From assembly GCA_022414725.1 (NCBI GenBank), contig CM039463.1, forward strand, positions 89,852,484 through 89,916,483: 64,000 nt of DNA, written 5' to 3'. Within the stretch, counting starts at the first letter, position 1; every line of letters begins with the position of its first letter. The position numbers were made by a program, and so were the translations under genes. Under the pieces are notes generated by a model. That model did no database searches. It was not told the DNA's origin and saw only the letters and a list, made by a program, of their open reading frames with translations. Below, piece after piece: positions 2,217-62,866 of the stretch. The stretch is from Microglena sp. YARC. Taxonomy: Eukaryota > Chlorophyta > Chlorophyceae > Chlamydomonadales > Chlamydomonadaceae.

Positions 2217-2562
2217 AACGGGGATTCATGGTGCTACCAGGGTTGGAAATGCTGGTCAGGAACATAGCACGGTGGTGCTGAAGACTGGGGGTACTGAAGA
2301 CAGCCCAAGAGGGCTCTTAAGTAGCACCCCCAAAGCACAAAAATCCCTTTCGCAGTACTAGTGCTATAAGTAGCACCTTCACATATCCCCCATTCCACAG
2401 AAGAAGCATCCCAATTGCTAGGCAGGGGGAAGCTGGCCAGCACTTCTTTTCCTTAACTACCTAAGCCCTAAACCACCAAAACCTTAACCACTGAAACCCT
2501 AGTGCTGACCAGGTAGGTGCTGACCAGCTTCCCCTACATCCTTGCTATCCATGGTTGATTGA

Positions 2563-2617
2563 GATGGAACTCCATTGCCTTTCTACAAGGAGTTAGTGGC
2601 CAAGGCTTCATTGGAAT
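2563..2617 (-). pseudogene. Decayed copy of the last-exon tail
   Basis: About 55 bp resemble 2711-2765 ([10 protein letters not shown] region and the final TCTCAATC) with substitutions, including an in-frame TAG. It is separated from the real exon end by the MITE fragment 2618-2710. It suggests how the sequence read before the MITE insertion. Confidence 0.7.
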
Positions 2618-2710
2618 GCCTATTATGTCAGCTATTGAGGCTTGGGGCTTAGGCTAGTGGCTGGCTCAGGGAGCTGCCTAGAAGCTGCTGCTCGTAGCTG
2701 AAAAGAAAAA
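2618..2710. mobile_element. MITE family A, truncated, joined to the amidohydrolase stop codon
   Basis: Only one inverted end and the start of the body are present. The end (GTAGCTGAAAAGAAAAA) meets the TAG stop codon at 2711-2713 directly. Confidence 0.75.
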
Positions 2711-2896
2711 CTAGGATTGAGATGTAACTTCAGTGCCTTTCTCCAAGAAGTCGGTGGCCAAGGCTGCGAGGTACTTAGAGCCCAACATCAAAGCATCTTC
2801 ATCAACTTTGAAAAGAGGGGAATGCAAGCCGTGGATGGCACCGATGGCCTCATTGCGCACTCCCAAAAATGCAAAGCAGCATGGGACAGCTTGGGC
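2711..2896 (-). CDS. Amidohydrolase last exon (C-terminus, metal ligand HSPLF)
   Basis: This 186-nt exon enters in phase 0 after CTTCACCAG and ends at TAG 2713-2711. It codes for 61 residues, [14 protein letters not shown] then [17 protein letters not shown], equal to the plant C-terminal block with its last metal His (His391). The TAG sits at the junction with a MITE fragment (2618-2710), and a decayed copy of the exon tail follows at 2563-2617. The present C-terminus may therefore have been set by that insertion. Confidence 0.92.
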   Translation of the reverse strand, partial: AQAVPCCFAFLGVRNEAIGAIHGLHSPLFKVDEDALMLGSKYLAALATDFLEKGTEVTSQS

Positions 2897-4334
2897 CTGG
2901 TGAAGGGGAGAGAGGAAGTTGGGAACAGCAATCGATTCAGATATTTTGTGAAAGGATGTTTTTGCAGTATGCTGGACCCCTTGTTGCGCACTCCCAATAA
3001 TGCAAAGCAGTGTGGAACAGCTTGGGTATGGTGAAGGAGAGAGAGGCAGTTGAGAACTTCAGTCGATTTATAAGTTTTGCGATAGGATTTCCACGCCAGG
3101 ATGCTTAACCCCTCCTTACGCACTCCCAATAATGCAGAGCAGCATGGAACAGCTTGGGCCTTAAGAAGGGGAGAGAGGCAGTTGGGAACAGCAGTCGATT
3201 TATATATTTACTGATAGGATTTTCTTGCCAGGATGCTGGACCCCTCCTTACGCACTCCCAATAATGTGAATCAGCGTGGGACAGCTTGGGCAAGGTGAAG
3301 GGGAGAGAGGCAGTTGAGAGCATCAGTCAATTTAGATATTAAGCAAAAGGATTTTCTTGCCAGGATGCTGGACCCCTCCTTGCGCACTCCCAAAAATGCA
3401 GAGCAGCATGGAACAGCTTGGGCAGGGTGAAGGGGAGGGAGGCAGTTGGAAACAGCCCTCGATTCAGATATTTTGTGATAGGATTTTCTCACCCAAAGGC
3501 TTGCACCCGTGCAGTTTTTATTGTATTAGATATTTATGTAGGCCAGGTTGAGTAAGTACTTGGCCTGCTCAAGCCTGATTTCAGGATTGTTGCCTTGCCG
3601 TCGCATGGCGGAGGGGAAGCGCGGATCCCGGGGGGGTTCATGCGTCGCTATGCAAAACAAAAGTGACCCCATGCACAAACCAGCGACCCAGATGATGAAT
3701 AGTGAGGAGTGTTGAAGTAGATGCAGCAGCAGTAGCAGTAGCAGTAGCAAAAGAAAGGAATCCAGCTTTCCAGATATACCTAGGGAACAGCAATATGATA
3801 TCATGCCATCATATGATACCGGCAGTCGGACTAGGCTGAAGTGACCATTTATATACAAAATCATACGATGCAGTTTCACCTTTGGTCATCATCATATGAT
3901 ATGCCGGTCCCTAGATATACCACACAATTTCATGACTCATCCAACTATTCTTAGTGATGGACCCCATGAGCACCATCACCATCATCTAACACACTCCTGT
4001 GCCCCAACCCCAGTGCGTCTCACCATGAACGCTAAGTCCTCACTGCCCATCGTCAGTTCAGCTGCTTCAACTCCCCCCCCCCCCCCCTCCCCCCTCCCCC
4101 CCCAAAAAAACCAGCAGCAGCAGCAGCAGTGACTTCATCTAACACCCGCCAGTGTCCCAACACCAGTGCAACTCACAATGGACACTAAATCCTCACTGCC
4201 CATCATTAGTTCAGCTACTTCAACTTATTTCTCCCCAACAAAGCAGCAGCACCATCACCATCATTAAACACACTCCTGTGCCCCAGTGCATCTCACCATG
4301 TACGCTAAGTCCTCACTGCCCATCGTCAGTTCAG

Positions 4335-4386
<52 letters not shown>

Positions 4387-7300
4387 ACACACCCTCCCCC
4401 CAAAAAAACCAGCAGCAGCAGCAGCAGCAGTGACTTATCTAACACCCGCCAGTGTCCCAACACCAGTGCAACTCACCATAGACGCAAGTCCTCACTTCCC
4501 ATTGTTAGTTCAGCTGCTTCAACTTATTTCTCCCAAACAAAGCAGCAGCACCATCACCATCATCTAACACACTCCTGTGCCCCAAAACCAGTGCAACTCA
4601 CCATGAACGCTAAGTCCTCACTGCTCATCATTAGTTCAGCTTCTTAAACTTATTTCCCCCCAACAAAAGCAGCAGCAGCAGCAGCAATGAAGTCATTAGA
4701 CACCCTCCTATGCCCCATTGATCACCCTCCTGTGCTTTAACACCAAGTGCAACTCACCATAAACGCAAAGTCCTCACTGGCCATTGTCGGTTCAGCTTCT
4801 TCAACATTCTTCTCCCCAAACACTTTTTCAGCTACGCCCACTGCAAATTTGACTGCTCTTGCATCATTGACAAGAGGAGGGTAGTAGGGTTCCTGATCCT
4901 CCCTGAAATTAACACGTCCTGTGCATCCATGGATTGACGATTGTGACTCCACAATCTCCACGAGTCGGATTCGCAAGTGCTTCATAGTCTCATCTGAAAA
5001 AGCCCTACATGCAAGGAGCAGCATCTCATATGATGTTGACCAAAGGCGAGTATATGATATGATATGATATCATACAAATTGCATCATAGAATATTATATA
5101 TAAATGGTAACTTTAGCCCAGTCAGACTGCCGGCATCATATGATTTCATATGATGACATGATATCATATTGCCGTTCCCTACCTACATGTGACATTGTGA
5201 CAATCAGGTTAGGTAAGAAGAGCATCACCTCCAGGTAGCTATACACTCTCTAGTGTTTATGTTTTCAGCTGCACATAGCAGCTTCCTGTCAGCTCCATCA
5301 GCCAGCCACTGGGCCATTCCCAAAGCTTTCAACTGCATTCGAATGCCCTTTATGTCAGCTTTCAGGCACACTAGCTAGCTACAGGTTTGCTCCAAGGACA
5401 GGAACAGGGAGCTGCCTATAAGCTGTTAAGTGTAGACCCAAAAAGAAACAGTGACACTCTCATGCCTGTGTGCATGTTTCAGGCCAGGGGAGCATCCATG
5501 TACCGACGATCTTGTCTCCACAATCACTTTTTGTTGGTAGACCCCCAACCCCCTTGGGACGGGAGCCCCCCCAGGGTCAACCCGTTGTCCATTTGTCCAA
5601 CCACGCTAAGCCACAAAGCCATATGTCTCAAGTAACTGTCCCGTGACTTGATTCTGATGCCACCTGTCGTTCCGATAGCCAACACTCTCTGCCAATTTCC
5701 CTAGGACTTGTTTCTTTCAAGGACGCGTCGTCACAGCGTCGCCATTCCGTCGTTGCATGGCGACACGTGACCCCCCCAACCCCCCCGTGCGATGGCTTTG
5801 CAACAATGATAAAATCAGGCTTGAGTAGCCCCAGTAGCTACTCAACCTGGCCTACATAAATACGAAATAAACAAACATTGTCCACAATCTCGTCTAGTCT
5901 GATTCGCAAGTGCTTCATGGTTTCATCTGTAAATCCCTACATAGGATATTGTCACAATGGCCCTAAAAAGCTTTAAAAGCTATAAAAAACACTAAAACGC
6001 TGTCCCTGCAGGAGGCCTCCAACCATCAAGCTAGAGAAAACCCACTTTCAGATTTGTAAAGAGCCTGATATTCCGGGGCGCAGGTTAAGAAGAATATAAG
6101 AACATCACCTACAGGTACTTAGATACTCTCATTGTAGAATTAAATCATCACTGAAGCACGAGCTCAGGGCCTCCGTCAGTTAAACGATTGTTTGGGGCTC
6201 AGTTCATCAGTTCTTCTTCTTTTTAAGCCCTTCCTATACGGTTGGGCAAGTCCCTTTAGCCTATTTGGCCTACCCCTGGACTGTAACATACATACATAGA
6301 TACTCTCATGCTTGTATGCATGCTTCAGTCCAGGGGTAGCCCAACAGGCTAAGTGTTGAGCAAGGAATGAAAAAATTCTATGCAGCGTTGCAAGGGACGT
6401 TAAAAATTGGCAAAGAGGTGCGACTGAGTGACAGGTGGCAACGGAAGCGAGTTAGTTACGAGACCGTTGGCTGACGTGTCAGGTTTCATCTCAGTCAGAC
6501 GGCCAGTTGGTCGGTTGGTTGGTCAGTTGGATGGACAAATGGGTAACCCAGGGGGCTCCCACCCCCTTGAAGAGGGGGCTCTGCCAAAAAAGATCATCAC
6601 CGCCACATAGCTAGACACTCTCATGCTTGTATGTGCATAAATATGCACCCTTTCAGACAGCACCCTATCAAACATCACCCTTTCAAGCAAATTAAAAGAA
6701 TACCGATGACCCCCCCCAAATTTGCAGTATGTGCATACTAGAACCCAGGGGTAGCCAAATAGACTGAAGGGGCCCAACTTAAAACATTGAAGGTGAACGC
6801 TAGACTACCAGGAGGGGCTAATTGAGAAAAAAAACTTGATGAACTGGTCCATGAGTGCAGGGAATCGGTAAGCTTATCGCGTGGTAGTTGGGTTGCATCT
6901 TGGCATAGGCCTATACCTTGGCATTTACGTTGTGCATGTTGTTGTTACCTTTACCTGTCTTCCTGTAGTTTTATCATCATTAATAATTCAGGGGATGATT
7001 TGGGACTCGAACGAGGGGGGGTAGTGGGGTGGGGTGGGGTGGGATGGGGCAGTGGGGGTGGGTGCACTTGTCACTAGCTTCCTCAAAGCGCACCTGATTG
7101 TCCCCCCAAACGTGATGGAATCAGGCACCACATTGAACGCATCTCCCCCACTTATGTTACATATATTCACCAGGGCAGGAATACGAGGGGACGTAGTGTG
7201 TGTGTGGGGGGTGTGGGGTGCACACGTGAGGGGGCGTAGTGTGTGTGTGTGGTGTGTGGGGTGGGGGTGGGAGCACTTGTCACTAGCTGTTGCAATGCGT

Positions 7301-10300
7301 ACCCGATTGTTCCCCCAAACGTAATGGAATCAGGCACCACATTGAACGCATCTCCCCCACTTATTTTACAGATATTCACCATGACAGCCTCATTGGGGGC
7401 GTAGTGGGTGGGTGGGGTGCACTTGTCACTAGCTTCCTCAAAGCGCACCTGATTGTTCCCCCAAACGTGATGGAATCAGGCACCACATTGAACGCATCTC
7501 CCCCGCTTATGTTACATATATTCACCACCACAGGCTCATGGGGTGGGAGTGCACTAGTCATTAGCGGCTTCAGATTGGAAACTATAGAAGCCCCCGCGAC
7601 GACAGGGTTGGTTGTCAGATGTGGCATCGCAGCGTGACCACCCTGCAGAGGATGGGAGCAGGGCAGCAGCATTTTTAGCTATGTGGTTACAGTCATCCTG
7701 TTCCGACGAATGGCTCAATGGTACAGCTCATTGAAATCAGAAGGTGTGGGGTTTGAATCCCTACGGGTGCGCTTTAGTGGTTGCGGTACCGCCATGGTAG
7801 CTTTGTCCAGGTAAAGTAGCAGCCCATCCCCTAATGCCGTAAGACGGGGTTCCCTTAATACCACACCCCCCCAGGCATTATCATTACTTTGGTTACAGTC
7901 CAGGGGTAGCCAAAATAGGCTACAGGAACTCCCTCCAAGCCCCTCAAATAATCAAGACGACTCTGGACTACCAGGAGGGGCTATCAAAACAAGCACTCTA
8001 TGACCTGGTCCAGTGGTCACCAAACAATTGCGCCTTTGTGACCTGAGACAAAGTCCTGTTTGGATAATATGGATAATATGGATAATAAGAGGTTGATGGT
8101 AGGTTGGGCTGCTTGCCTCTTTGGCAATAGGCTGCAACTTCTGCACAGCCTCTTTAGACGGCCATTCAACTAAGCTAAAAGGTTTCAGTAGTTCTGGGCC
8201 ACTTTGTTTTGTTTCCAAAGACGTGTTGCCACTGCATCGCCATTCCGTAGTAGCATGGCGGCATATGAACCCCCGTACCCCCCCACCCCACACCCGGTTC
8301 TGCGCTTCGCACTCCGCCATGTCATGGCAACACATCAATCCTGAAACCAGGCTTGAGCAGCCTAAGCAGCGACTCAACCTGGCTTACAGAAATATAAAAT
8401 AAAAATTTCTGTTCTGGACAGCAGATGCTGATAGCTTGCTGGAAGCTTACAGGTGCACAACCTTGCTCAAGATTCGGGTGAATGGAAAAACGACAAGCCC
8501 ACTTTGCCCAGGATATATCACTCACTAAATAAGCAAATAACAGGTGGAACAGCCATTGTAATTTACAATGTAAATGTTAACTTTGTAATTTACAATGTTA
8601 TGATATGTTTTGTAGTTATCTAAAGTAATGCGTTATTCCCAGTATCACTTAGATGTAACACCCACCTAGCCAGATATACATAAATCCAGAAATGACAAGT
8701 GCAATGTGTAACTGGAAAGGCATAGTTCGATCAAGACATGACGATTCCAACATCCACCTGTCAAGGTATAGTTCGATCAATACATGACGATTCCAACATC
8801 CACCTGTCAAGGTATAGTTCGATCATAATTGAAAAGTGCAACAACCACCTTGCAAGATATAGTTTTATCAATAAATGGCAAGTGCAACACACACCTGGCC
8901 GGATATAGTAACTTCAAACGAAATGACACCTGCCATGATGGGGCCAGGTCGAGTTGCGATGGTGCCAGCTGGCAGGGCGGGCCACACATGAAGAGCAAAT
9001 GCCATGTCAGCATCCTGCAGGGTACAGCCACATTTGTTTAGGCCAGGGAGACAAAAGGCAGGCAGGCAAAAGAAGCACTGACAGAGGGGAGTGATGGTGC
9101 CAGCTGGCAGAGAGCGCAACACATGAAGAGCAAACGCCATGTCAGCATCCTGCATGGCATAGCCACATTTTTGCAGTTTTACTTGGCTTGATTAGAGATC
9201 GAGATATAGAGATAAACGTCTCTTAATTATTGCTGTCGTGAGTCTACCTGGGTTACCTACATTACATTTGTTTTCATTACTTCCATTAAGTAGGATCATT
9301 ACTAAGGCTTTCATAACCTCCATTAAGTAGGATCAGTGCTAAGGCTTTCATTACCTCCATTAAGTAGGATCATTACTAAGGCTTTCATAACCTCCATTAA
9401 GTAGGATCATTACTAAGGCTTTCATTACCTCCATTAAGTAGGTTCATCACTAAGGCTTTTATTTTCTCCATTAAGTAGGTTCATTACTAAGGCTCTCATT
9501 ACCTCCATTAAGTAGGTTTGTTACTAAGGCTTTCATTACCTTCATTGAGTAGGTTTATTACTAAGGCTTCCATTACCTCCATTAATTAAGTTCATTACTA
9601 AGGCTTTCATTTTCTCCATTAAGTAAGTTCATTACTAAGGCTTTCATTACGTCCATTAAGTAAGATCATTACTAAGGCTTTCATTTTGTCCATTAAGTAA
9701 GATCATTACCAAGGCTTTCATTTCTGACACGTTGTTGGTCTATTAGCCTTCCTGCTGCTCTCAGTCTGCGAGCAGAGTACACATGGATAGCAATAATGCT
9801 ACTACACCACACTCTGGAGTACAGAATGCGATCACAGATATGTTGACAGTTTCAAGGCATGTCTAGGTCAATAATTTTGTGGGTAGAGGAAACAGCATGG
9901 AGGCAGGCAGTTGCTTTTGTAGACAAGGCAAAAGATGCTCTGGCGGAAAGTAGGCAGTTTTTATATTGGCAGGGGAAAAGATACACTGGCGGAAGGTAGG
10001 CAGGTGTTTTGTAGGCAGGGCAAAAGAAGCAATGGCAGAAGGTGAGCAGTTGTTTTAGGCAGGGGAAAAGATGTACTGGCAGAGGAATACAATTGCAAAT
10101 ACACTTACCTCATATATCGTCATATAAAATCATACACCATCACATACCAATCATACGCATACTTCACATACCAATCATACACCTACACCTACATCATCAC
10201 ATACCAATCATACACATACACCATCACATACAAGTCATACGCCTAAACATACATCATCACATACAAATCATACACAAACATCACCAAATACAAATCACAC

Positions 10301-13300
10301 ACATACTTCATCACATACAAATCATACACCTACATCATCACATACCAATCATACACATACACCATCACATACAAATCATACACAAACATCACCAAATATA
10401 AATCACACACATACTTCATCACATACAAATCATACACCTACATCATCACATACCAATCATACACATACACCATCACATACAAATCATACACAAACATCAC
10501 CAAATACAAATCACACACATACTTCATCACATACAAATCATACACCTACATCATCACATACCAATCATACACATACACCACCAAATACAAATCACACACA
10601 TACTTCATCACATACAAATCATACACCTACATCATCACATACCAATCATACACATACACCATCACATACAAATCATACACAAACATCACCAAATATAAAT
10701 CACACACATACTTCATCACATACAAATCATACACCTACATCATCACATACCAATCATACACATACACCATCACATACAAATCATACACAAACATCACCAA
10801 ATACAAATCACACACATACTTCATCACATACAAATCATACACCTACATCATCACATACAAATCATACACCTCCACTTACATCACCACATACCAATCATAT
10901 ACATACATCATCACATACAAGTCATACGCCTTCACATACATCATCACATACACATACACATACATCATAACATACAAATCATACACCTGCATGATCACAT
11001 GGAAATCATACACCCTCACATAACTCATAACATACAAATCATACACATACATCATCACATACAAATCATACATCTACATAATCACATACAAATCATAAAC
11101 ATGCACATACAAATCATTAACATGCACATACATCATAAACATACAAATCCCCCCCCCCCCCCCCCCCCCCCCTTCCACAAACACACACCCCACTGGACAC
11201 CCACCCTACCCACTGCTTCTTTGGGGGGCGACGCATAGCAGCTTCTAGGCAGCTCCATTCCCCCGCCCTCGGTCCAAACCTGAAGCTAGCAACTGTATTT
11301 CAAGGCTGACCGGACGGGCATTCTTATGCAGCTGAGAGCTGTTGGCTTGACCCAGTGGCTGGCTAATGGAGCTGGTTGGGAGCCCCCATGCGTAGCCAAA
11401 AAAAGAAACACTGATTCTACCCCCCACCCCAAACATACCGAGAGGACTCCCTGCTGGACCATGACCTTGCCCCCGCCATGAGCCTCCTCCGCCGGTTGGA
11501 ATATGAGTCTGACTGTCCCTTGCAGCTCACCATGCTCCATCTCCACTTGCTTGAGTAGCCGCGCAGCACCCAGCAGCATGGCGGAGTGACAGTCGTGACC
11601 TGTATAGGATTGGGAACTTGAACTTGAACTTCACACAGCACCCAGCAGCATGGCGCAGTGACAGTCATGACCTGTAGTAGACTGGGAACTTGAATGTGAA
11701 CTTGAACTTCACACAGCACCCAGCAGCATGGTGCAGTGACAGTCGTGACCTGTAGTAGATTGGGAACTTGAATTTGAACTTAAATTTCACACAGCACCCA
11801 GCAGCATGGCGCAGTGACAGTCGTGACCTGTACATGATTGATAGCTTGAATTTTAACTTTGATTTGAACAGCGCTCCATCTCCACTTGTTTGAGTAACCG
11901 CACAGCACCCAGCAGCATGGCGCAGTGACAGGCGTGACCTACACAGGATTGAGAATAAATAAATAGTCCGCCTTATGACGATGCACGAGGTTGTGAGGGC
12001 CAGCCTGTTTTCTTGCACTGGGGCCAACCATAGTCATGACCTGAACAGGATTGAGAACTTGAACTTGGAATTTAATTTGAACATGAACTTGAACTTCCAG
12101 AGGCCTATCTGGGGCTAGAACTTGAACTTGAACTTGGTTACATGGCTCTAGCCTGATAAGGATGCTCACCATCTTTAGCTGTCATCTTCAAGATGCCCTA
12201 GGATCAGGTTTGGCTGACTAGCCAGTCTTGGGAGCTGCCTAGAAGCTGCGATTTGTAACTAAAAAATAAAAGCACAGCCTTCAACCTGCCCGTCCCTAAA
12301 GTGCCAGCAGCAGCGCCAGAACAGAACTCCCCACATGCATCATTAGGGTATCAGCAAATCAGCAGGAACAACAGGTTTATCGAGAGTTCCATCGGCACTG
12401 CACATACCTCTGTATACATAATGCTTATGAATGCATTATGTGTAAACATATAAAATGATGTAAACACATATATAATAATGTATACACATACCCGTATACA
12501 ATTATGCACATATGCATACATAGTAATTGTGCACGCACAATGTATGTCCGCATGGGTATGCATAATGTATACACATATAATAATGTACTAACACATATAT
12601 AATTATGCATACCCATGAGTATACATAGTTCATGTGTATGCATGATGGAGAATCCTTGTGAAAGCAAATGGCATTAAAAGCAAGATATAACTCACCACAT
12701 GCATGCATGCAGCCTTCATGATTGCTGCAGTATGGTAAGTCCGTCAATTCAGTAATGGGGAGTGCGTCCTGCATATGAAAGGCCACAAAGTCACAACAAT
12801 AGCGAGTTTTAACATTTACACATGTGGCCCAAGTGAGCACGTAACTTGGTGACAGGCGATAACCACTGTTCTTGCATGGCACGTTAAGCTGCTGGCATGT
12901 CTGGTTAATGTCTAAGGGTTGGAAGGGCTACACATTCACAACGACCAGTTAGAGCAACCGTTTTTTTGCGGGGTGGGGGGGGGGGGGGATACGCATAGCA
13001 GCTTCTAGAAAGCTCCAGCTCCAGCTCCAGCTCTTTTCCATGTCCTTTGGCCAAACCTGAAGCTAGCTAGTGTGCCTGAAGCTGACGTGGCAGGAATTCC
13101 AACGCTGCTGAAAGCATTGGGCTTCACCCAAGGGCTACTAATGGAGCTGACCGGAAGCTGCCATGTGTAGCCCCCAAAAGAAACAGTGGCTGTATCCATT
13201 ACCATATCTGCTCTCAAAGCGATGACTGGCCCCTTCCCATTGCCAAGCTGGGCCACAACTCCTGTATTGGCCACGGGGTACTGGTACTCGATGCCAAGGG

Positions 13301-16300
13301 AATCCAAGGTCTGTGTAGGAGGGGGTTATGAGGATAAGGATAAGGATGAGGAGGATGAGGAGGTGGATGACGGTGAGGGGGATGACGATGAGGAGGATGA
13401 GGAGGTGGATGAGGGTGAGGGGGATGACGATGAGGAGGATGAGGAAGTGGATGAGGGTGAGGGAGATGACGATGAGGAGGATGAGGAGGTGGATGAGGGT
13501 GAGGGGGATGACGATGAGGAGGATGAGGATGTGGATGAGGGTGAGGGGGATGACGATGAGGAGGATGAGGAGGTGGATGAGGTTGAGGGGGATGATGATG
13601 AGGAGGATGAGGATGAGGAGGATGAGGAGGTGGATGAGGGTGAGGGGGATGACGATGAGGAGGATCAGGATGTGGATGAGGGTGAGGAGGATGACGATGA
13701 GGAGGATGAGGAGGTGGATGAGGGTGAGGGGGATGACGATGAGGAGGATGAGGAGGTGGATGAGGGTGAGGGGGATGACGATGAGGAGGATGAGGATGTG
13801 GATGAGGTTGAGGGGGATGACGATGAGGAGGATGAGGAGGTGGATGAGGGTGAGGTGGATGACGATGAGGAGGATGAGGAGGTGGAGGATGAGGAGGTGG
13901 ATAAGGGTGAGGGGGATGACGATGAGCAGGATGAGGAGGTGGATGAGGGTGAGTGGGATGACGATGAGGAGGATGAGGAGGTGGATGAGGGTGAGGGGGA
14001 TGACGATAAGGAGGATGAGGAGGTGGATGAGGGTGAGGTGGATGAGGGTGAGGGGGATGACGATGAGGAGGATGAGGAGGTGGGAGGTGATGACGAGGGT
14101 GACGATGATGGATGAGGAGGTGGATTGACGATGACGATGAGGAGGTGGATGAGGGTGAGGGGATGACGGATGACGGGGATGACGATGAGGAGGATGAGGA
14201 GGTGGATGAGGGTGAGGGGGATGACAGGAGGATGAGGAGATGAGGATGACGATAGGATGAGGAGGTGGATGAGGGTGAGGGGGATGAACGATGAGGAGGA
14301 TGAGGAGATGAGGGTGAGGGGGATGACGATGATGAGGAGGTGGATGAGGGTGAGGGATGACGGATGACGATGAGGAGGATGAGGAGGTGGATGAGGGTGA
14401 GGGGGATGACGATGAGGAGGATGAGGAGGTGGATGAGGGTGAGGGGGATGAATGAGGAGGATGAGGAGGTGGATGAGGGTGAGGGGGATGACGATGAGGA
14501 GGTGGATGAGGGTGAGGGGGATGACGATGAGGAGGATGAGGAGGTGGATGAGGGTTGATGACGATGAGGAGGATGAGGAGGTGGATGAGGGTGAGGGGGA
14601 TGACGATGAGGAGGATGAGGAGGTGGGAGATGAGGGTGAGGGGGATGACGATGAGGAGGATGAGGAGGTGGATGAGGGTGAGGGGGATGACGATGAGGAG
14701 GATGAGGAGGTGGATGAGGGTGAGGGGGATGACGATGAGGAGGATGAGGAGGTGGATGAGGGTGAGGGGGATGACGATGAGGAGGATGAGGAGGTGGATG
14801 AGGGTGAGGGGGGATGACGATGAGGAGGATGAGGAGGTGGATGAGGGTGAGGGGGATGACGATGAGGAGGATGAGGAGGTGGATGAGGGTGAGGGGGATG
14901 ACGATGAGGAGGATGAGGAGGTGGATGAGGGTGAGGGGGATGACGATGAGGAGGATGAGGAGGTGGATGAGGGTGAGGGGATGACGATGAGGAGGATGAG
15001 GAGGTGGATGAGGGTGAGGGGGATGACGATGAGGAGGATGAGGAGGTGGATGAGGGTGAGGGGGATGACGATGAGGAGGATGAGGAGGTGGATGAGGGTG
15101 AGGGGGATGACGATGAGGAGGATGAGGAGGTGGATGAGGGTGAGGGGGATGACGATGAGGAGGATGAGGAGGTGGATGAGGGTGAGGGGGATGACGATGA
15201 GGAGGATGAGGAGGTGGATGAGGGTGAGGGGGATGACGATGAGGAGGATGAGGAGGTGGATGAGGGTGAGGGGGATGACGATGAGGAGGATGAGGAGGTG
15301 AGGAGGATGAGGGTGAGGGGGATGACGATGAGGAGGATGAGGAGGTGGATGAGGGTGAGGGGGATGACGATGAGGAGGATGAGGAGGTGGATGAGGGTGA
15401 GGGGGATGACGATGAGATGAGGAGGATGAGGAGGATGAGGAGGTGGATGAGGGTGAGGGGGATGACGATGAGGAGGATGAGGAGGTGGATGAGGGTGAGG
15501 GGGATGACGATGAGGAGGATGAGGAGGTGGATGAGGGTGAGGGGGATGACGATGAGGAGGATGAGGAGGTGGATGAGGGTGAGGGGGATGACGATGAGGA
15601 GGATGAGGAGGTGGATGAGGGTGAGGGGGATGACGATGAGGAGGATGAGGAGGTGGATGAGGGTGAGGGGGATGACGATGAGGAGGATGAGGAGGTGGAT
15701 GAGGGTGAGGGGGATGACGATGAGGAGGATGAGGAGGTGGATGAGGGTGAGGGGGATGACGATGAGGAGGATGAGGAGGTGGATGAGGGGTGAGGGGGAT
15801 GACGATGAGGAGGATGAGGAGGTGGATGAGGGTGAGGGGGATGACGATGAGGAGGATGAGGAGGTGGATGAGGGTGAGGGGGATGACGATGAGGAGGATG
15901 AGGAGGTGGATGAGGGTGAGGGGGGGATGACGATGAGGAGGATGAGGAGGTGGATGAGGGTGAGGGGGATGACGATGAGGAGGATGAGGAGGTGGGATGA
16001 GGGTGAGGGGGATGACGATGAGGAGGATGAGGAGGTGGATGAGGGTGAGGGGGATGACGATGAGGAGGATGAGGAGGTGGATGAGGGTGAGGGGGATGAC
16101 GGATGAGGAGGATGAGGAGGTGGATGAGGGTGAGGGGGATGACGATGAGGAGGATGAGGAGGTGGATGAGGGATGAGGGGGATGACGATGAGGAGGATGA
16201 GGAGGTGGATGAGGGTGAGGGGATGACGATGAGGAGGATGAGGAGGTGGATGAGGGTGAGGGGGATGACGATGAGGAGGATGAGGAGGTGGATGAGGGTG

Positions 16301-34300: not shown

Positions 34301-37300
34301 GGGGATGATGTAGTATGAAGGATAACGGATGAAGGTGTGGATGAGGGTGAGGGGATGACGATGAGGAGGAAGGAGGTGGATGAGGGTGAGGGGGATGAAC
34401 GATGAGGATGGATGAGGGAGGTGGTATGAGGTGATGATGAGGAGGATGAGATGGTGGATGAGGGTGAGGGGGACTGACGATGAGGAGATGAGGATAGGAT
34501 GAGGGAGGAATAGGCGGATTGAGGGATGAGGTGGATGAGTGAGATGACGATGATGGAGGATGAGGGAGGTGGATGAGGGTGAGGATGACAATGAGGATGA
34601 TTGGGATGATGACAGGATGAGGGAGGATGAGGAGGTGGATGAGGATGAGGGTGGATGAGGATGAGGAGGATGAGGAGGTGGATGAGGGTGAGGGGGATGA
34701 CGATGAGGAGGATGAGGAGTGTGGATGAGGGTGAGGGGGATTGACGATGAGGAGATGAGGAGGTGGATGAGGGTGAGGGGGATGACGATGAGGAGGATGA
34801 GGAGGTGGATGAGGGTGAGGGGGATGAGATGAGGAGGATGAGGAGGTGGATGAGGGTGAGGGGGATGACGATGAGATGAGGATGAGGAGGTGGATGAGGG
34901 TGAGGGGGATGACGATGAGGAGGATGAGGAGGTGGATGAGGGTGAGGATGAGGATGAGGATGAGGATGAGGATGAGGGAGGATGAGGATGAGGAGGATGA
35001 GGAGGTGAGGATGAGGGAGGATGAATGAGTGAGGTGAGATGAAGGATGCGTGGGAGATGATGATGAGGATGACGAGGGAGGAGGTGGATTGAGGAGGCGG
35101 GATGACGAGGAGGATGAGGAGGTGGATGAGGGTGAGGGGGATGACGATGAGGAGGATGAGGAGGTGGAATGAGGGTGAGGGGGATGACGATGAAGGATGA
35201 GGATGGGATGAGGAGGGGTGAGGGGGAGGGATGACGATGAGGAGGATGAGGAGGTGGGATGAGGGATGAGGATGGGGATGGATGATGAGATGAGGAGGAT
35301 GAGGAGGTGGATGAGGGTGAGGGGATGACGATGAGGGAGGATGAGGAGGTGGATGAGGGTGAGGGGATGACGATGAGGAGGATGAGGAGGTGGATGAGGG
35401 TGAGGGGGATGAGGATGATGAGGAGGTGGATGAGGGATGAGGATGAGGATGAGGATGAGGATGAGGTGAGGGGGATGACGATGAGGAGGATGAGGAGGTG
35501 GATGAGGGCGGAGGGAGGATGACGATGAGGAGGATGAGGAGAGGATGAGGTGAGATGGATGAGGGGGATGAGGAGGGGATGATGATGGAGGGGGATGAGG
35601 AGGATGGATGAGGGGAGGGGGATGACGATTGAGGAGGATGAGGTGAGGGGATGAATGAGGATGAGGAGGTGATGTTGAGAGAGGATGAGGAGGAGGATGA
35701 GGATGAGGAGGGGGGACGATGAGGAGGGTGAGGAGGTGGATGAGGTGAGATGACGATGAGGAGAGATGATGAGGATGAGGATGAGTGAGCGATGAGGATG
35801 AGGAATGAGGAGAGGATGAGGAATGAGGAGTGAGGGGGTATGACGATGACGGAGGATGAGGGGATGAGGGTGGATGAGAGGGGGATGAGGACGGAGAGGA
35901 TTGGGGTGAGGTGGATGTGGGTGGGGGGATGACGCATGAGGAGGATGAGGACACACCTGATACTTCCCTTCCTGATCTGATGATAAATGGGTGCTTTTGG
36001 AGGGGGGAGGTCAGAGGTTGAGCAGGGGGAACGAGGACAGTATTAATTTTCAGTTGCTGCGTGGGGGGGAACATCCTGACTGAGTGAGTACATGGAAGGT
36101 GGTGGTGGTGGAACGGGGGGTGGCTGGGGTTTTGGGGGGAGGGGAATAAGATGTCTGCTGCTGTAGATGAAGAAAGACCGAAGAACGCTGAAACGGCTTG
36201 ATTATTCTGTTCCACAGATGTTTTTTGATGTGGGATGGATTTGTGCTTGTGTGTGATTGATGTGATTCTCACCCCAAGGCGATAGTTGTAGCAATAAGCT
36301 AATCAGCTAGCTAATCTTTTAGGCTAACAAATCCCCATCCCACATGAAAACATATACATGCATATATATAAAAACATCTACATGTATGATGCTCCTGCAC
36401 ATCTGGGACTGTGGTACCGCATTCATCTCTAACAACTGTTTCTTTTTGGGGCTGCTAGTAGCAGCTTCAAGGCAACCGTTTTGGCCCCCGTCCTTGGAAC
36501 AAAAAGGTTAAAAAAACCAAAACCCTTCCTACAGAAGTAAGAAGTTCACGTTGGAAAGGCGGAGCATGCCGGATCACTACCGATCGAGAGACGGGCCCCA
36601 CTGCCCCTGGCAACCTGGACAGATAAACCCCCTGTTCAGGTATGTAGAGGCGGAGGCAAGGAGACATAACAACTTCCCATACATATGGAATGAGTGCTGA
36701 TCATAATGCTTGCTTGCCGCAATCTTGCTTGCTGCAATGCCTTTCTTTTTCTGAGGATTTGTTAGAAGACCCCTCCTGGAGGCTGTGGAGAGGGCTTGTC
36801 TTGGGCCAGCAATGGCTCGTTGATGACAATGTAATGTAATGCAACGCAATGTAATGAAATACGGTGCCTTGAGACACCTCGAGACATCTCGAGGTGCACG
36901 AGATTCGCCACCTTGTTTTGAGACATGGGTGGCCATCATAAGTGCGAAGCGCTATCATGCTATCACTCACTCGTCGGATGATTGCGCTGGTCTTATTCTC
37001 CTGCATGAGGGCACACAAATGAGTAGGGTTGTCAATATCGCCATGTTTCCAAGAGTATGGGGCAATATATTATTAGGGTTGGGAAGCTAACATACATTTT
37101 TATTTTTTCAAGCCCTATAAACATATAAACATATGAACGTATAAATGTATGCATACAAACGTATGTAATTTTTTCACACTTGTGGAGTAAATACTTTTAC
37201 ATGGGTTTAAAGGTATTGCCGCGTTGCTAATTTCATTGGCAATCACAAATCAAACTCTCAGACAAAAATATCTGGCAAGTTAAGGTTGTCCAACACCCAG

Positions 37301-38343
37301 AAAAGGAAATTACAACAAGAAAGCGCGTCGACCAAGAAGTGTGGTGCCAATCTAAGGTAGCCATTATGTTGCAATATTGTCCATGTTCAAATCATAACAC
37401 ATCACACATGTTCGCTTTCAAGACATGGTCCTTCAGCCTGCATTTTACTCACCGTCTCCGAGCAGAGCACACGTATCGCACAACCCTGGTATGGAATAAT
37501 CTTGAATGTTTAAGGTTGGGCAAATCCATTTAGCCTAATTCGCTACCCCCAAGGTGCTCGTATCAGCAAGGCCTGTTTTTGTTCTCTGCAGATATAGGGT
37601 ACCGGTTCACAACAGCCTGGGTGGATAACACACGTACATGCAGAAGCCCTACTACACCACATCCTTCTGTATCCCGGCCTGGGTGACATGGTGATGATTC
37701 GACGCCGGAGTCGACGTCTAGGCGTCTGGGCACCCAACTTCGGTCGCCGCCCTGCCCCGTACGTAGTAGACCCGCCCATCCATGCATGAACCTGGACAAT
37801 ACTTTAAATTCTCTAATCCGCTTAGTATGCTCCCTGGTTTTCCTTGGATAGGTATCTCAGAGGAGGAATTGGAATTGGAAGACGGTGAGAAGCCCAGAGT
37901 TGCCTGCAAAACCATGTTACAATCCAATCCAACCCATCCACGCATGGGTTCGAATCCTGTTGGGTACACTCCACCAGACGACGAAGGTTTCCATGGGCGA
38001 TGGGTTTGATTGGGGGTTTTCATGAGCGTGAGTTCTTTTCTGCAGACGGTTAGAGCCCGAAGGCGTGTATAACAACCCCCCGACGGAGGTCCTCCGTCTT
38101 CTGGCCTGTCCATGCCCCCCCGCTCTCCACACTCTACTTTATTTTTACCTTGAATGAGAGTTCTGGGTTCTGGTGCAGTAGCCGACGAGTGGAGATGATC
38201 CAGTCCTCCATTTCATCGTTGTTCAGCGACAGCATGGGCGTGTGCTTTCTCGACCCATCGATACCCCGAAACTTGGGCTGGAGAGCTTTGCATGTGGTCA
38301 GCCTACTTGCTCCACTATGCTTCGATGCGGAGAGAGATCGCAT
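2711..38343 (-). CDS. M20D amidohydrolase (IAA-amino acid hydrolase ILR1-like), split gene with eight placed exons
   Basis: Exons in gene order: 38149-38343, 13203-13310, 12696-12768, 11439-11599, 8895-9014, 7449-7642, 4758-5004, 2711-2896. All introns have GT-AG ends and the phases join without a shift. The concept is 427 residues without one short missing exon after exon 1; the family is usually about 430-450. M20D enzymes cleave amide bonds of N-acyl amino acids, in plants auxin-amino acid conjugates, with a two-metal centre. All five expected metal ligands are visible: Cys125 and His127 in HACGHD, Glu164 in QPAEE, His188 in ALHVWP and His391 in [13 protein letters not shown] and [14 protein letters not shown] mark the lid/dimerisation domain. 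The substrate in this organism is unknown. The first 36 residues are rich in Ser, Arg and Lys with no acidic residue before position 29, like an organelle transit peptide (inference). ATG 38343 follows an in-frame TAA directly; Met37 is an alternative start with a better context. Confidence 0.9.
2983..3510 (-). repeat. Four tandem copies of the 5' edge of the last amidohydrolase exon
   Basis: A unit of about 131 bp is repeated with starts near 2983, 3115, 3247 and 3377; the real exon edge (about 2850-2910) is the fifth member. Each copy holds the polypyrimidine-AG-like stretch, the AVPCC-like codons and about 25 bp of exon, then unrelated sequence. Most have lost the exact acceptor and the reading frame. 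They lie in the intron just upstream (sense) of exon 2711-2896. Confidence 0.85.
3535..3665 (-). repeat. Dispersed repeat family B, inverted copy
   Basis: The reverse complement carries the CTTGAGCAGGCC...CTCAACCTGGCCTAC end of the family and the GCGACGCATGAAC-type block. Confidence 0.5.
4004..4650 (-). repeat. Five tandem copies of the donor edge of exon 4758-5004
   Basis: Copies of about 60 bp lie near 4004-4071, 4160-4231, 4281-4338, 4460-4522 and 4587-4649. Each resembles the last 55 bp of the exon ([13 protein letters not shown] region) together with its GTGAG donor; most keep TGGTGAG or a close variant. Between them are CAG, CCATCA and poly-C microsatellites. They fill the intron directly downstream (sense) of the exon. 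Confidence 0.85.
4337..4392. repeat. Poly-C followed by (CA)n
   Basis: About 34 C followed by about 20 nt of CA repeat, inside the intron that holds the donor-edge copies. Other poly-C runs are at 4073-4100, 11149-11172 and, as poly-G, 12970-12988. Confidence 0.95.
4758..5004 (-). CDS. Amidohydrolase exon (RAFSDETMK to SEDFAFM)
   Basis: This 247-nt exon enters in phase 2 after GCATGTAG, giving [12 protein letters not shown] across the junction, and leaves in phase 0 at ATG|GTGAGT. It ends with the conserved [10 protein letters not shown] block that returns the chain to the catalytic domain. About 60 bp of its 3' end with the donor recur five times in the next intron (4004-4650). Confidence 0.92.
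5258..5451. mobile_element. MITE family A, copy
   Basis: Both ends are recognisable: TTTTCAGCTGCACATAGCAG on the left and GTAGACCCAAAAAGAAACA on the right. It lies in the intron upstream (sense) of exon 4758-5004. Confidence 0.75.
5705..5880 (+). repeat. Dispersed repeat family B, copy
   Basis: Same order of blocks as 8213-8405, ending in CTACATAAATACGAAATAAA. Confidence 0.55.
5890..6980. other. Intron sequence with repeat pieces only
   Basis: This part of the intron between exons 7449-7642 and 4758-5004 holds pieces of families C and D and no coding sequence that I can support. Confidence 0.5.
7094..7172 (-). pseudogene. Partial copy of amidohydrolase exon 7449-7642 (second copy)
   Basis: It repeats the last 80 or so bases of the exon ([19 protein letters not shown] region) almost unchanged, with the same GTGCGC donor. 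The spacers between the copies share a G/T-rich stretch ending in a CACTTGTCACTAGC-like motif, so the duplicated unit is roughly 145-210 bp and spans exon end, donor and intron start. Confidence 0.85.
7304..7390 (-). pseudogene. Partial copy of amidohydrolase exon 7449-7642 (first copy)
   Basis: It repeats the last 85 or so bases of the exon ([23 protein letters not shown]) with an intact frame and a GTACGC donor. No acceptor half is present. It could act as an alternative donor only if the sequence between is retained. Confidence 0.85.
7449..7642 (-). CDS. Amidohydrolase exon (GGHAAMPH to FGGTI)
   Basis: This 194-nt exon enters in phase 0 after CCTCTGCAG and leaves in phase 2 at ATCAG|GTGCGC. 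It codes for the lid/dimerisation domain motifs [18 protein letters not shown] and [18 protein letters not shown]. Its 3' half occurs twice more downstream in the following intron, each copy still followed by a GT donor. Confidence 0.93.
7703..7870 (+). mobile_element. tRNA-derived SINE
   Basis: A-box TGGCTCAATGG at 7711-7721 and B-box GGTTTGAATCC at 7750-7760 are followed by the same body as the copy at 2044-2216 (CCATGGTAGCTTTGTCCAGG, CCGTAAGACGGGGTTCCC). It lies in the intron upstream (sense) of exon 7449-7642, opposite to the gene. Confidence 0.8.
7896..8010 (+). repeat. Dispersed repeat family C (about 120 bp)
   Basis: CAGTCCAGGGGTAGCCAAA at one end and CTACCAGGAGGGGCTA further in are shared with 6735-6860 and, inverted, 61430-61510. 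Shorter pieces occur at 6225-6290, 6325-6360, 37508-37556 and 59855-59890. Confidence 0.55.
8213..8405 (+). repeat. Dispersed repeat family B
   Basis: It shares a CATCGCCATTCCGTAGTAGC block and CAGGCTTGAGCAGCCTAAGC-type 3' part with 5705-5880 (plus) and, inverted, 3535-3665. All end in CTGGCYTACA-AAAT followed by an A-rich tail, so a SINE-like retroposon is likely. No pol III boxes were recognised. Confidence 0.55.
8655..8870 (-). repeat. Ladder of five donor-edge copies of exon 8895-9014
   Basis: The junction ATATC(C/T)-CAG|GTG-TGTTG recurs about every 46 bp, with donor positions near 8848, 8804, 8757, 8711 and 8664 after the true one at 8894. Four of the five keep GT; the one near 8711 has lost it. 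Each unit is exon end plus about 35 bp of intron. Confidence 0.85.
8895..9014 (-). CDS. Amidohydrolase exon ([12 protein letters not shown] to TISGQ)
   Basis: This exon has 40 codons, phase 0 at both ends, acceptor CCCTGCAG and donor GGCCAG|GTGTGT. It carries metal ligand His188 in ALHVWP and the [10 protein letters not shown] turn that links the catalytic and lid domains. Both edges are duplicated nearby: a 5' copy at 9091-9149 and a ladder of donor-edge copies at 8655-8870. Confidence 0.93.
9091..9149 (-). pseudogene. Decayed copy of the 5' half of exon 8895-9014
   Basis: It matches the first 59 bases of the exon ([16 protein letters not shown]) with a CAG acceptor just upstream in sense at 9151-9150. 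It diverges at about half-exon length and has no donor. Use of this acceptor would give [19 protein letters not shown]. Confidence 0.85.
9271..9727. repeat. 37-bp tandem repeat, about 12 copies
   Basis: The unit reads TCCATTAAGTAGGATCATTA followed by CTAAGGCTTTCATTACC, with substitutions between copies. It is intronic in the amidohydrolase gene and shows no coding sign. Confidence 0.93.
9895..10088. repeat. About 53-bp tandem repeat, 4 copies
   Basis: Units contain GGCAGGGCAAAAGA, TGGCGGAAGGTAGGCAG and a TTTTGTAGG-like stretch. A related sequence is next to the decayed exon copy at 9040-9090. Confidence 0.75.
10100..11148. repeat. About 30-bp minisatellite, 1 kb
   Basis: Units of the form CATCACATACAAATCATACA with CCTACAT or CATACAC spacers are repeated over 1 kb and end in poly-C at 11149. 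A higher-order pattern with CAAACATCACCAAATA recurs about every 120-160 bp. It lies in the intron between exons 11439-11599 and 8895-9014. Confidence 0.93.
11222..11409. mobile_element. MITE family A, copy next to a splice donor
   Basis: Ends GCATAGCAGCTTCTAGGCAG and its inverse are visible. Its right edge lies about 30 nt downstream (sense) of the donor of exon 11439-11599. Confidence 0.8.
11439..11599 (-). CDS. Amidohydrolase exon ([13 protein letters not shown] to QQGVLS)
   Basis: This 161-nt exon completes the HACGHD motif (His127) and carries QPAEE with Glu163 and Glu164, the general base and a metal ligand in this family. The acceptor is CCTATACAG and the donor TCG|GTATGT; exit is in phase 0. 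Its first 40 or so bases recur as four decayed copies in the intron just upstream (sense), at 11634-11950. Confidence 0.93.
11634..11950 (-). repeat. Four tandem acceptor-edge copies of exon 11439-11599
   Basis: The exon start (GTCACGACTGTCAC, MLLGA region) recurs at about 11634-11680, 11714-11760, 11792-11840 and 11872-11950, roughly every 80 bp, each with a CTGTAG- or TACACAG-like acceptor before it and 35-60 bp of exon after it. A further remnant is near 12030-12060. Between copies lie TTGAACTTGAA hexamer runs. Confidence 0.85.
12168..12270. mobile_element. MITE family A, half copy
   Basis: Right end with GGGAGCTGCCTAGAAGCTGC and an AACTAAAAAATAAAAG border; the left half is mostly missing or diverged. 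Confidence 0.6.
12300..12660. other. A/T-rich intron with ATGTATACACATA-like repeats
   Basis: Between exons 12696-12768 and 11439-11599 this part holds degenerate TATACACATA/ATGCATAC repeats. No gene is seen. Confidence 0.6.
12696..12768 (-). CDS. Amidohydrolase exon (DALPITEL to MHAC)
   Basis: This 73-nt exon enters in phase 0 after a CATATGCAG acceptor and leaves in phase 1 at TGTG|GTGAGT. It codes for 24 residues from DALPI to MHAC, including metal ligand Cys125 of the HACGHD motif. The motif is completed across the splice junction by the next exon. Confidence 0.93.
12982..13185. mobile_element. MITE family A, copy next to a splice donor
   Basis: Ends GCATAGCAGCTTCTAGAAAG and GGAAGCTGCCATGTGTAGCC with AAAAGAAACA border. 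It begins about 18 nt after the donor of exon 13203-13310 (sense). A short CCAGCT run is expanded near the left end. Confidence 0.8.
13203..13310 (-). CDS. Amidohydrolase exon (TLDSLGIEY to LRADM)
   Basis: This exon has 36 codons, phase 0 at both ends, an acceptor ending CTACACAG and the donor ATG|GTAATGG. It codes for the LGIEYQYPV strand and the [10 protein letters not shown] segment that leads into the metal-binding DALP motif of the next exon. The acceptor lies only about 18 nt downstream (sense) of the end of the 22.6-kb minisatellite. A MITE begins about 18 nt after the donor. Confidence 0.92.
13329..35953. repeat. 22.6-kb minisatellite, 42-bp unit, inside intron 1
   Basis: The array has about 540 copies of a 42-bp unit that on the plus strand reads as 14 codons ([14 protein letters not shown]). 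It is almost free of C on the plus strand, so the sense (minus) strand of the host gene is C/T-rich, with long stop-free frames in that direction from composition alone. Parts at 13.3-14.1, 17.4-20.3 and 21.1-22.0 kb keep the 42-bp frame and contain substitution variants. From about 22 to 36 kb single-base insertions and deletions become very frequent, and the last 3-4 kb also hold runs of a GAGGAT hexamer. I see no coding evidence in it. It fills intron 1 and ends next to the acceptor of exon 13203-13310. Confidence 0.97.
35954..38148. other. 5' part of amidohydrolase intron 1
   Basis: This is unique-looking sequence with a MITE end at 36434-36500, an ATGTAATGTAATGCAACGCA run near 36828-36860 like the tail of the LINE at 63.3-64.0 kb, and LINE 3'-end-like sequence around 36560-36700. 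The short missing amidohydrolase exon (about 12-14 codons) should be in this intron but I could not find it. Confidence 0.5.
36434..36500. mobile_element. MITE family A, end fragment
   Basis: Only the end TGTTTCTTTTTGGGGCTGCT and AGCAGCTTCAAGGCA is left, in the 5' part of intron 1. Confidence 0.55.
38149..38343 (-). CDS. Amidohydrolase exon 1 (N-terminus)
   Basis: This exon codes for 65 residues ending in HQNPELSFK, the conserved start of the M20D catalytic domain (plant homologues read HENPELAFEE). The donor is AAG|GTAAAA after position 38149, phase 0. An in-frame TAA touches the ATG on its 5' side, so the reading frame starts here or at the internal Met37. The next conserved stretch, usually EEFETSxLIR, is not in this exon nor in the next placed one. 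Confidence 0.8.

Positions 38344-51690: not shown

Positions 51691-62866
<11,176 letters not shown>

What the first reader, a model, noticed from the sequence alone, without database searches (positions are those of the whole stretch)
2563..12060. Introns built from tandem copies of the exon-intron junctions they border
At five amidohydrolase exons, pieces made of an exon edge plus its splice site are tandemly copied into the neighbouring intron: acceptor edges upstream of exons 2711-2896 (x4), 8895-9014 (x1) and 11439-11599 (x4), donor edges downstream of exons 4758-5004 (x5), 7449-7642 (x2) and 8895-9014 (x5). Periods differ (46, 80, 131, about 150 bp), so they are independent events with one direction rule: the true exon keeps the position that preserves the protein and the copies lengthen the intron. 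I know of no described process that produces this at exon after exon; splice-site tandem duplication as a route of intron growth would fit.
Basis: partly seen in the sequence, partly recalled or inferred. Interest (0 to 1): 0.87.

Follow-up and report, generated by a model that had tools for sequence, protein, structure and literature searches.

The report
Introns lengthened by junction-spanning tandem copies
In this large algal genome, pieces of DNA that straddle the border between a gene's coding and spliced-out parts have been copied head to tail into the spliced-out part, lengthening it and leaving look-alike splice sites behind; this seems to reflect a general habit of tandem copying rather than a process aimed at splice sites.

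Summary
The gene is an intact M20/ILR1-like amidohydrolase in a 568-Mb assembly whose nearest named relatives are green algae. Six junctions carry local tandem copies of "exon edge + splice site", a seventh a more distant one; the 19 junction-spanning copies scored all lie on the intron side. The pattern recurs: in chaperonin genes chosen without regard to repeats, 19 of 48 junctions lie inside tandem arrays, and the 54 copies scored are all intronward. One 1.8-kb TCP1-family intron is array throughout: 7 donor edges, then 3 acceptor edges. Four compact HSP70 genes: 0 of 20.

A junction-specific process is not supported. Junctions are copied about as often as, or less often than, ordinary intron positions: 6/13 vs 44.7%, 19/48 vs 48.9%, 0/20 vs 29.5%. 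The direction rule fits purifying selection on the exon. Best explanation: frequent, position-blind tandem duplication, filtered by selection, which lengthens introns and leaves decoy sites. Tandem duplication across an intron-exon boundary is published; the scale here is the new part. An excess of arrays at edges (21 of 40 vs 13.9 expected) stays open.

The parts
2711..2896 (-). Exon 7 (last exon, ends in TAG) of the M20 amidohydrolase; acceptor edge amplified
   Evidence: splicing gives intact ORF; Pfam and PDB matches of the product
2897..3489 (-). Acceptor-edge array of exon 7: 4 copies, period 131-132, each with up to 49 bp of exon; AG kept in 1 of 4
2557..2607 (-). Copy of the end of the coding sequence of exon 7, 3' of the gene; 86% over 51 bp; no splice site involved
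4758..5004 (-). Exon 6; both edges copied
3990..4757 (-). Donor-edge array of exon 6: 5 copies of the edge around TTTATG|gtgagttgc, GT kept in 5 of 5
5881..5942 (-). Single acceptor-edge copy of exon 6 (57 bp exon + 6 bp intron); exon bases 49-80 recur at 5494-5525, apparently split by an inserted element
7449..7642 (-). Exon 5; donor edge copied twice
7046..7381 (-). Two donor-edge copies of exon 5 (79 bp exon + 43-53 bp intron, 95 and 89% identity), GT kept in both
8895..9014 (-). Exon 4; both edges copied
8652..8894 (-). Donor-edge array of exon 4: 5 copies of about 46 bp with about 15 recognisable exon bases; GT kept in 4 of 5 (BLAST finds 2 of the 5)
9093..9170 (-). Acceptor-edge copy of exon 4 (57 bp exon + 21 bp intron, 90%)
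11439..11599 (-). Exon 3; acceptor edge amplified
11600..12067 (-). Acceptor-edge array of exon 3: 4 copies and one partial; AG kept in 5 of 5
12696..12768 (-). Exon 2, no junction-spanning copy found
13203..13310 (-). Exon 1 (of the main block), no junction-spanning copy found
36971..37000 (-). Upstream exon [10 protein letters not shown], no copy of its edges found
38149..38214 (-). Upstream exon [22 protein letters not shown] (its 5' end lies further upstream), no copy of its donor edge found
58987..59178 (+). Exon of a second gene whose donor edge is also copied (borders read by eye)
59424..59600 (+). Two donor-edge copies of that exon (about 46 bp of exon + GTAAT)

Best explanation
The genome of this green alga undergoes very frequent local tandem duplication with units of roughly 45-300 bp, blind to gene structure. 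A new duplication wholly inside an exon, or containing a whole exon, changes the protein and is removed by selection. One that straddles a single exon edge, or lies inside an intron, changes nothing as long as the exon-proximal splice site is still used, so it persists. Later rounds amplify the copies into arrays and the intron grows. Each copy carries a fossil splice site that then decays without clear sign of being kept or purged. The 'direction rule' is the trace of this filter. Shown here: the copies, their side, the genome background, the distance profile from the edge, and the state of the copied sites. Inferred: the mutational step (slippage, unequal exchange or repair synthesis), the selection, and the use of the exon-proximal site.
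For: (1) Junction positions are not enriched: 6 of 13 vs 44.7% of intron positions; 19 of 48 vs 48.9% (two-sided binomial p 0.25), 21 of 48 vs 53.4% with offsets to 600 bp; 0 of 20 vs 29.5%.
(2) Local tandem copies cover on average 31% (median 30%) of 20 ten-kb stretches taken at round-number positions on contigs C1-C5, so tandem copying is a general habit of the genome.
(3) In this gene exon sequence is copied mainly near edges: 52-56% of positions within 40 bp of an edge, then 33, 19 and 5%, and 0 of 9 beyond 100 bp; introns show no peak at the edge. Each of the 7 arrays that touch an exon end touches exactly one.
(4) The end of the coding sequence is copied too, without any splice site.
(5) 54 of 54 chaperonin copies and 19 of 19 here are intronward.
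(6) Splice dinucleotides are kept in 55 of 73 copies, against 1,209 of 1,930 intron-side and 1,811 of 2,427 exon-side dinucleotides of the same alignments (sums).
(7) Collapsing each array to one unit shortens 24 chaperonin introns from 28,213 to 16,667 bp.
(8) Two TCP1 paralogues (L025, L026) carry junction arrays at opposite edges of the same intron, 855 vs 2,973 bp.
Against: Counting arrays instead of positions, more touch an exon end than a birth-by-one-unit model predicts: 21 of 40 vs 13.9 +- 2.7 in chaperonin genes, still 20 of 39 vs 13.5 +- 2.7 when exon letters are masked, and 6 of 10 vs 2.1 +- 1.3 in the gene given (7 of 11 vs 3.0-3.8 under random placement). In the chaperonin set edge-touching arrays are also longer on average (21 arrays, 9,715 intron bp) than inner ones (19 arrays, 6,586 bp). 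HSP70 genes go the other way (0 of 6 vs 2.0). The expectation depends on crude estimates of unit and ancestral intron length. Chaperonin acceptors keep AG more often (21 of 26) than other intron dinucleotides (369 of 697), though not clearly more than exon-side ones (648 of 909). In two of six arrays with more than one copy, exon-derived parts vary less among the copies themselves than intron-derived parts (E3 p = 1.7e-4; gene B, where the intron parts may not be homologous), with the same tendency in E7 (p 0.08) and E5 (p 0.10) but not clearly in E6 or E4 donor; simple neutral decay does not predict that.
Confidence: 0.8

Rival explanations
1. Splice junctions themselves seed duplication (for example through co-transcriptional breaks or secondary structure at splice sites), so introns grow from their edges.
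For: More arrays touch edges than the one-unit birth model expects in chaperonin genes (21 of 40 vs 13.9; 20 of 39 vs 13.5 with exons masked) and in this gene (6 of 10 vs 2.1; 7 of 11 vs 3.0-3.8 under random placement). Edge-touching chaperonin arrays are longer on average than inner ones. One TCP1-family intron consists of edge arrays throughout.
Against: At the level of positions junctions are not enriched. None of 6 HSP70 arrays touches an edge. The end of the coding sequence is copied too. The expectation rests on rough unit and intron-length estimates.
Confidence: 0.12
2. The copies are functional: alternative donor or acceptor sites, or partial alternative exons kept by selection.
For: Many copies keep GT or AG (55 of 73 over both sets; chaperonin acceptors 21 of 26 vs 369 of 697 other intron dinucleotides), and in E3, with a tendency in E5 and E7, the exon-derived parts vary less than the intron-derived parts.
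Against: Overall retention (75%) equals that of exon-side dinucleotides of the same alignments (1,811 of 2,427) and chaperonin donors are kept no better than intron controls (18 of 28 vs 484 of 712). Offsets show no clear frame preference: 20 of 54 chaperonin offsets and 9 of 19 here are multiples of 3. Use of the in-frame E3 copies would run into TGA (read by eye).
Confidence: 0.05
3. Templated repair of double-strand breaks copied nearby exon edges into the introns one at a time (synthesis-dependent strand annealing), as described for primates.
For: PMC2671141 (passages) reports local duplications up to 619 bp that include splice sites. The single E6-acceptor copy lies about 0.9 kb from its source.
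Against: Most copies in this gene are head to tail with regular periods. That paper itself removes copies within 50 bp of their source as tandem duplications typically formed otherwise. Its Table 2 lists 4 partial exon/intron donors; it analyses 824 duplications.
Confidence: 0.15
4. Assembly artefact.
For: Repeat-rich, partly N-containing assembly (L006, L019 and L022 hold runs of N).
Against: Copies differ from their sources by about 5-31% here and by similar amounts in other genes; the coding frame is intact.
Confidence: 0.02

Closest known systems
Tandem genomic duplication crossing an intron-exon boundary (potato RdRp gene, PMC4974935; abstract and passages seen)
   Same: A head-to-tail duplicated segment that contains part of an intron, the splice site and part of the exon.
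   Different: There the duplication created a new intron and an added exonic segment; here an existing intron gets longer, the spliced frame is intact, there are up to 6 copies per edge (L026), and several genes are affected.
[quoted passage not shown] seen only as cited in passages of PMC4974935 and PMC3443670)
   Same: Tandem duplication plus splicing keeps the protein intact.
   Different: In that model the source lies inside an exon and supplies both splice sites of a new intron. Here one edge is copied into an intron.
Repair-mediated local duplication by strand annealing (PMC2671141; passages seen)
   Same: Local copies of up to a few hundred bp that can include splice sites.
   Different: Dispersed copies; the tandem ones were excluded from that study.
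Intronic minisatellites (general knowledge)
   Same: Arrays of short units in introns that grow by further rounds.
   Different: Here the unit reaches into the coding exon.

Membership tests
Tandem genomic duplication (general) | Head-to-tail copies of one segment | tested here: met
Tandem genomic duplication across an intron-exon boundary | Unit contains both exon and intron sequence with the splice site | tested here: met
Intron gain by tandem duplication | A new intron arises that is absent in relatives, with source sequence in the exon | tested here: inconclusive
   No genome of a relative was available. In L026 the intron starts with copies of the upstream junction, not of the downstream exon as the AGGT model would have it. 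That intron is absent in its paralogue L025, but gain and loss cannot be told apart.
Tandem exon duplication / mutually exclusive exons | Whole exon with both splice sites copied | tested here: not met
   in this gene each of the 7 arrays that touch an exon end touches only one; not counted in the other genes
Introners | The same element in many unrelated introns | tested here: inconclusive
   junction-spanning hits of this gene are all near their own edge; a separate dispersed family matched beside E1, E3 and E7. Arrays were not compared between genes
Strand-annealing repair duplication | Breakpoint microhomology or filler, dispersed donor and acceptor | not tested
   breakpoints were not analysed; most copies in this gene are tandem

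The most novel reading that the evidence does not exclude
Splice junctions are preferred birthplaces of tandem duplications in this lineage, so introns grow outward from their two edges. Some end up built wholly of donor-edge and acceptor-edge copies, like the TCP1-family intron of L026 with 7 donor edges (6 with GT) and 3 acceptor edges. The spliceosome must then pick the exon-proximal one of many near-identical sites by exon definition.
Probability: 0.12. Interest if true: 0.85.

Novelty: new variant of a known kind. Interest (0 to 1): 0.5.

Why it matters
In two gene families about a quarter of the sampled splice junctions (19 of 68: 19 of 48 chaperonin, 0 of 20 HSP70) stand next to tandem copies of themselves, most copies keeping GT or AG. 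That makes this alga a natural test of how the spliceosome chooses between near-identical sites: exon definition predicts the exon-proximal one, 5'-to-3' scanning from a branch point would predict the first acceptor copy. It also gives a measured route of intron growth without transposons: copies beyond the first unit make up about 11.5 of 28.2 kb of chaperonin intron sequence. And it warns gene annotators: the public model P0003 of this gene departs from the homology-supported frame before E4 and inside the last exon.

Tried and rejected
Rejected: chance similarity (three shuffled versions 0-0.04%; resampled control 0 of 48 junctions and 2.3% coverage). Assembly error (divergent copies). Whole-exon duplication in this gene. 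Selection for reading frame of the copies. A junction hot spot at the level of positions. Detection bias towards exon-linked arrays as the sole cause of the event-level excess: 20 of 21 edge arrays are still found with exon letters masked, so the excess stays open.

Paralogue comparison to date the arrays failed: compared exons of the TCP1 pair (L025, L026) and the Cpn60 pair (L030, L031) are 75-84% identical, and of five intron comparisons three gave no match and two only short weak ones. Pfam gave no usable domain for two of three pieces of the second gene; the repeat-rich third piece hit ELH weakly (2.8e-7) and I did not follow it. Eight literature searches listed no paper that by title or abstract reports junction-spanning arrays as a genome-wide feature; the library lacks most subscription papers. 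The species was not identified.

Rows dropped: of the 64 chaperonin matches, 44 lie in the 9 stretches and were used as exon cores; one more match inside L026 (322-374, downstream of a core that covers the same profile part) was left out, and four cores were trimmed by hand. Of 35 adjacent exon pairs 24 introns in 8 genes were kept; 11 were left out for a profile gap over 14 positions, no intron between them, or poor splice scores; L028 gave none. In L023 the second-best donor was taken for one intron because the protein continues there (judgement). No RNA supports any junction. Copies are BLAST pieces with at least 8 bp on each side of the junction, 12-1500 bp away. Of HSP70 (75 matches) only 4 compact genes could be used (15 matches; 10 of 11 exon pairs), which favours short introns; another HSP70 gene does show two acceptor-edge copies.
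Full report
WHAT IS THERE. The region holds a minus-strand gene for an M20 amidohydrolase of the IAA-amino-acid hydrolase type. Seven exons splice with GT-AG borders into an open frame of 362 aa ending in TAG, matching Pfam PF01546 and PF07687, Arabidopsis ILL2 and, apart from the organism's own model P0003, homologues at up to 69% identity. Two further exons lie upstream at 37000-36971 and ending at 38149, so the intron before 13310 is 23.7 kb long. The window lies on contig C2 of a 568,105,699-base assembly of 2,390 contigs.

THE COPIES. With the three upstream junctions, where nothing was found, this is 7 of 16 junctions. Alignments show units of different length, exon share and divergence. 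A copy of the end of the coding sequence lies 3' of the gene. A second gene on the other strand has a donor edge copied twice. Three block-shuffled versions of the region have almost no such matches.

ARE JUNCTIONS SPECIAL? In this gene 6 of 13 junctions are inside local copies (offset up to 300 bp) against 44.7% of 9,439 intron positions; with offsets up to 1500 bp, 7 of 13 against 49.2%. With 160-bp queries 58% of intron positions are spanned, the intron profile shows no peak near edges, and exon positions are copied less with distance from the edge: 52-56% within 40 bp, 0 of 9 beyond 100 bp. Placing the 11 local arrays at random gives 3.8 arrays touching an exon end (3.0 if whole-exon and intra-exon placements are forbidden, 1.1 for single birth units) against 7 seen; P(>=7) is 0.008, 0.003 and 0 of 50,000 runs. 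The gene was picked because of the pattern, so this cannot stand alone.

THE REST OF THE GENOME. Twenty 10-kb stretches at round-number positions on five contigs have on average 31% of their bases in local tandem copies, range 0-100%. For a test not selected for repeats I located chaperonin exons by PF00118 (64 matches), fetched 9 gene stretches and derived 24 introns in 8 genes from splice signals, phase and profile continuity. Nineteen of 48 junctions lie in local tandem copies, against 48.9% of 27,637 intron positions; 21 of 48 against 53.4% with offsets to 600 bp. A locally resampled control gives 0 of 48 and 2.3% coverage. All 54 junction-spanning copies scored, at 19 junctions, lie on the intron side. 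Sixteen of 24 introns have at least one junction-touching array and 5 have both; such arrays make up 9,715 of 28,213 intron bases, inner arrays 6,586. Counting arrays, 21 of 40 touch an edge against 13.9 +- 2.7 expected, and 20 of 39 against 13.5 +- 2.7 among those detectable with exon letters masked. Edge-touching arrays are on average longer than inner ones. In four compact HSP70 genes 0 of 20 junctions and 0 of 6 arrays touch an edge, with 29.5% of 8,496 intron positions in copies. Pooled, 19 of 68 junctions are copied, fewer than the 44.3% of intron positions (binomial p 0.007). One longer HSP70 gene has an acceptor edge copied twice.

THE CLEAREST CASE. In L026 (TCP1 family; CCT-alpha by resemblance, that name is recalled) the intron 7396-9203 is covered by arrays throughout: the true donor followed by copies at +206, +439, +624, +784, +976 and +1203 (87-93% identical over the aligned part, GT kept in 5 of 6), then acceptor copies at -414 and -207 before the true acceptor (90 and 92.5%, AG kept in both). 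Its paralogue L025 has no intron at that place, and at another shared intron the two genes carry junction arrays at opposite edges, with lengths of 855 and 2,973 bp. This suggests that the arrays arose separately in each gene.

DO THE COPIES DO ANYTHING? Splice dinucleotides in copies are kept in 18 of 28 donors and 21 of 26 acceptors in chaperonin genes, and 9 of 9 and 7 of 10 here. Intron-side dinucleotides of the same alignments are kept in 484/712, 369/697, 159/264 and 197/257, exon-side ones in 693/921, 648/909, 201/274 and 269/323. Summed, 55 of 73 splice dinucleotides, 63% of intron-side and 75% of exon-side dinucleotides are kept: no sign of purging, and at most weak signs of retention. 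Copies share ancestry, so these are not independent. Offsets are not multiples of three more than expected in the chaperonin set (20 of 54; 9 of 19 here). Exon-derived parts vary less among copies than intron-derived parts in E3 (p 1.7e-4) and in gene B (where the intron parts may not be homologous), with the same tendency in E7 and E5 but not clearly in E6 or E4 donor. Gene conversion from the exon, or composition, could explain that; I did not resolve it.

INTERPRETATION. A tandem duplication across one exon edge leaves the protein unchanged if the exon-proximal site is still used. One inside an exon, or around a whole exon, does not. Frequent, position-blind duplication plus this filter explains the side of the copies, the fall-off inside exons, the mixture with purely intronic arrays and the lack of enrichment of positions. 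It does not by itself explain the excess of arrays at edges in two of three gene samples. That the exon-proximal site is used is inferred from the intact frame and homology; no RNA was available.

KNOWN OR NEW. A duplication across an intron-exon boundary is published for potato, where it created an intron (PMC4974935, abstract and passages). The review PMC3443670 (passages) treats tandem duplication as a mechanism of intron gain. PMC2671141 (passages) describes local repair copies including splice sites. PMC8226300 (passages) gives median intron lengths of 198-343 bp in six core-Reinhardtinia algae, against a median of 1,029 bp in the 24 chaperonin introns here. Passages of PMC11228838 gave background on related algal genomes only. 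Eight searches listed no report of junction-spanning arrays at this frequency. I rate it a new variant of a known kind.

Noticed in passing
window 13338-35900: A 22.5-kb minisatellite (42-bp unit around GGATGAGG) fills nearly all of a 23.7-kb intron of the same gene and starts about 28 bp from the acceptor of exon 13203-13310.
   Followed up: partly
window about 5526-5893: The E6-acceptor copy is interrupted by about 0.36 kb flanked by the 8-bp repeat CCACAATC, which looks like an insertion with target-site duplication (read by eye; part of it recurs at 8311-8403).
   Followed up: no
window 5408-5453, 11347-11413, 12230-12271, 13138-13188: A dispersed short repeat family lies beside several exons of the gene.
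   Followed up: no
window 47547-48119: An open frame resembling a retroelement reverse transcriptase (by eye; not searched).
   Followed up: no
window 56314-58401: A long open frame made of 14-aa repeats (MKAAFDKSELDGAD-like), coded by in-frame 42-bp tandem units; weak Pfam hit to ELH.
   Followed up: no
L004 (G000:C1:20000001-20010000): All of this 10-kb stretch is in local tandem copies; coverage in 20 stretches ranges from 0 to 100%.
   Followed up: no
L025 about 5818 and L026 7396-9203 (0-based): Of two TCP1 paralogues one lacks the intron that in the other consists wholly of junction arrays; gain or loss could not be told.
   Followed up: partly
P0003 against the window: The public gene model of this amidohydrolase departs from the homology-supported frame before E4 and within the last exon.
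   Followed up: partly
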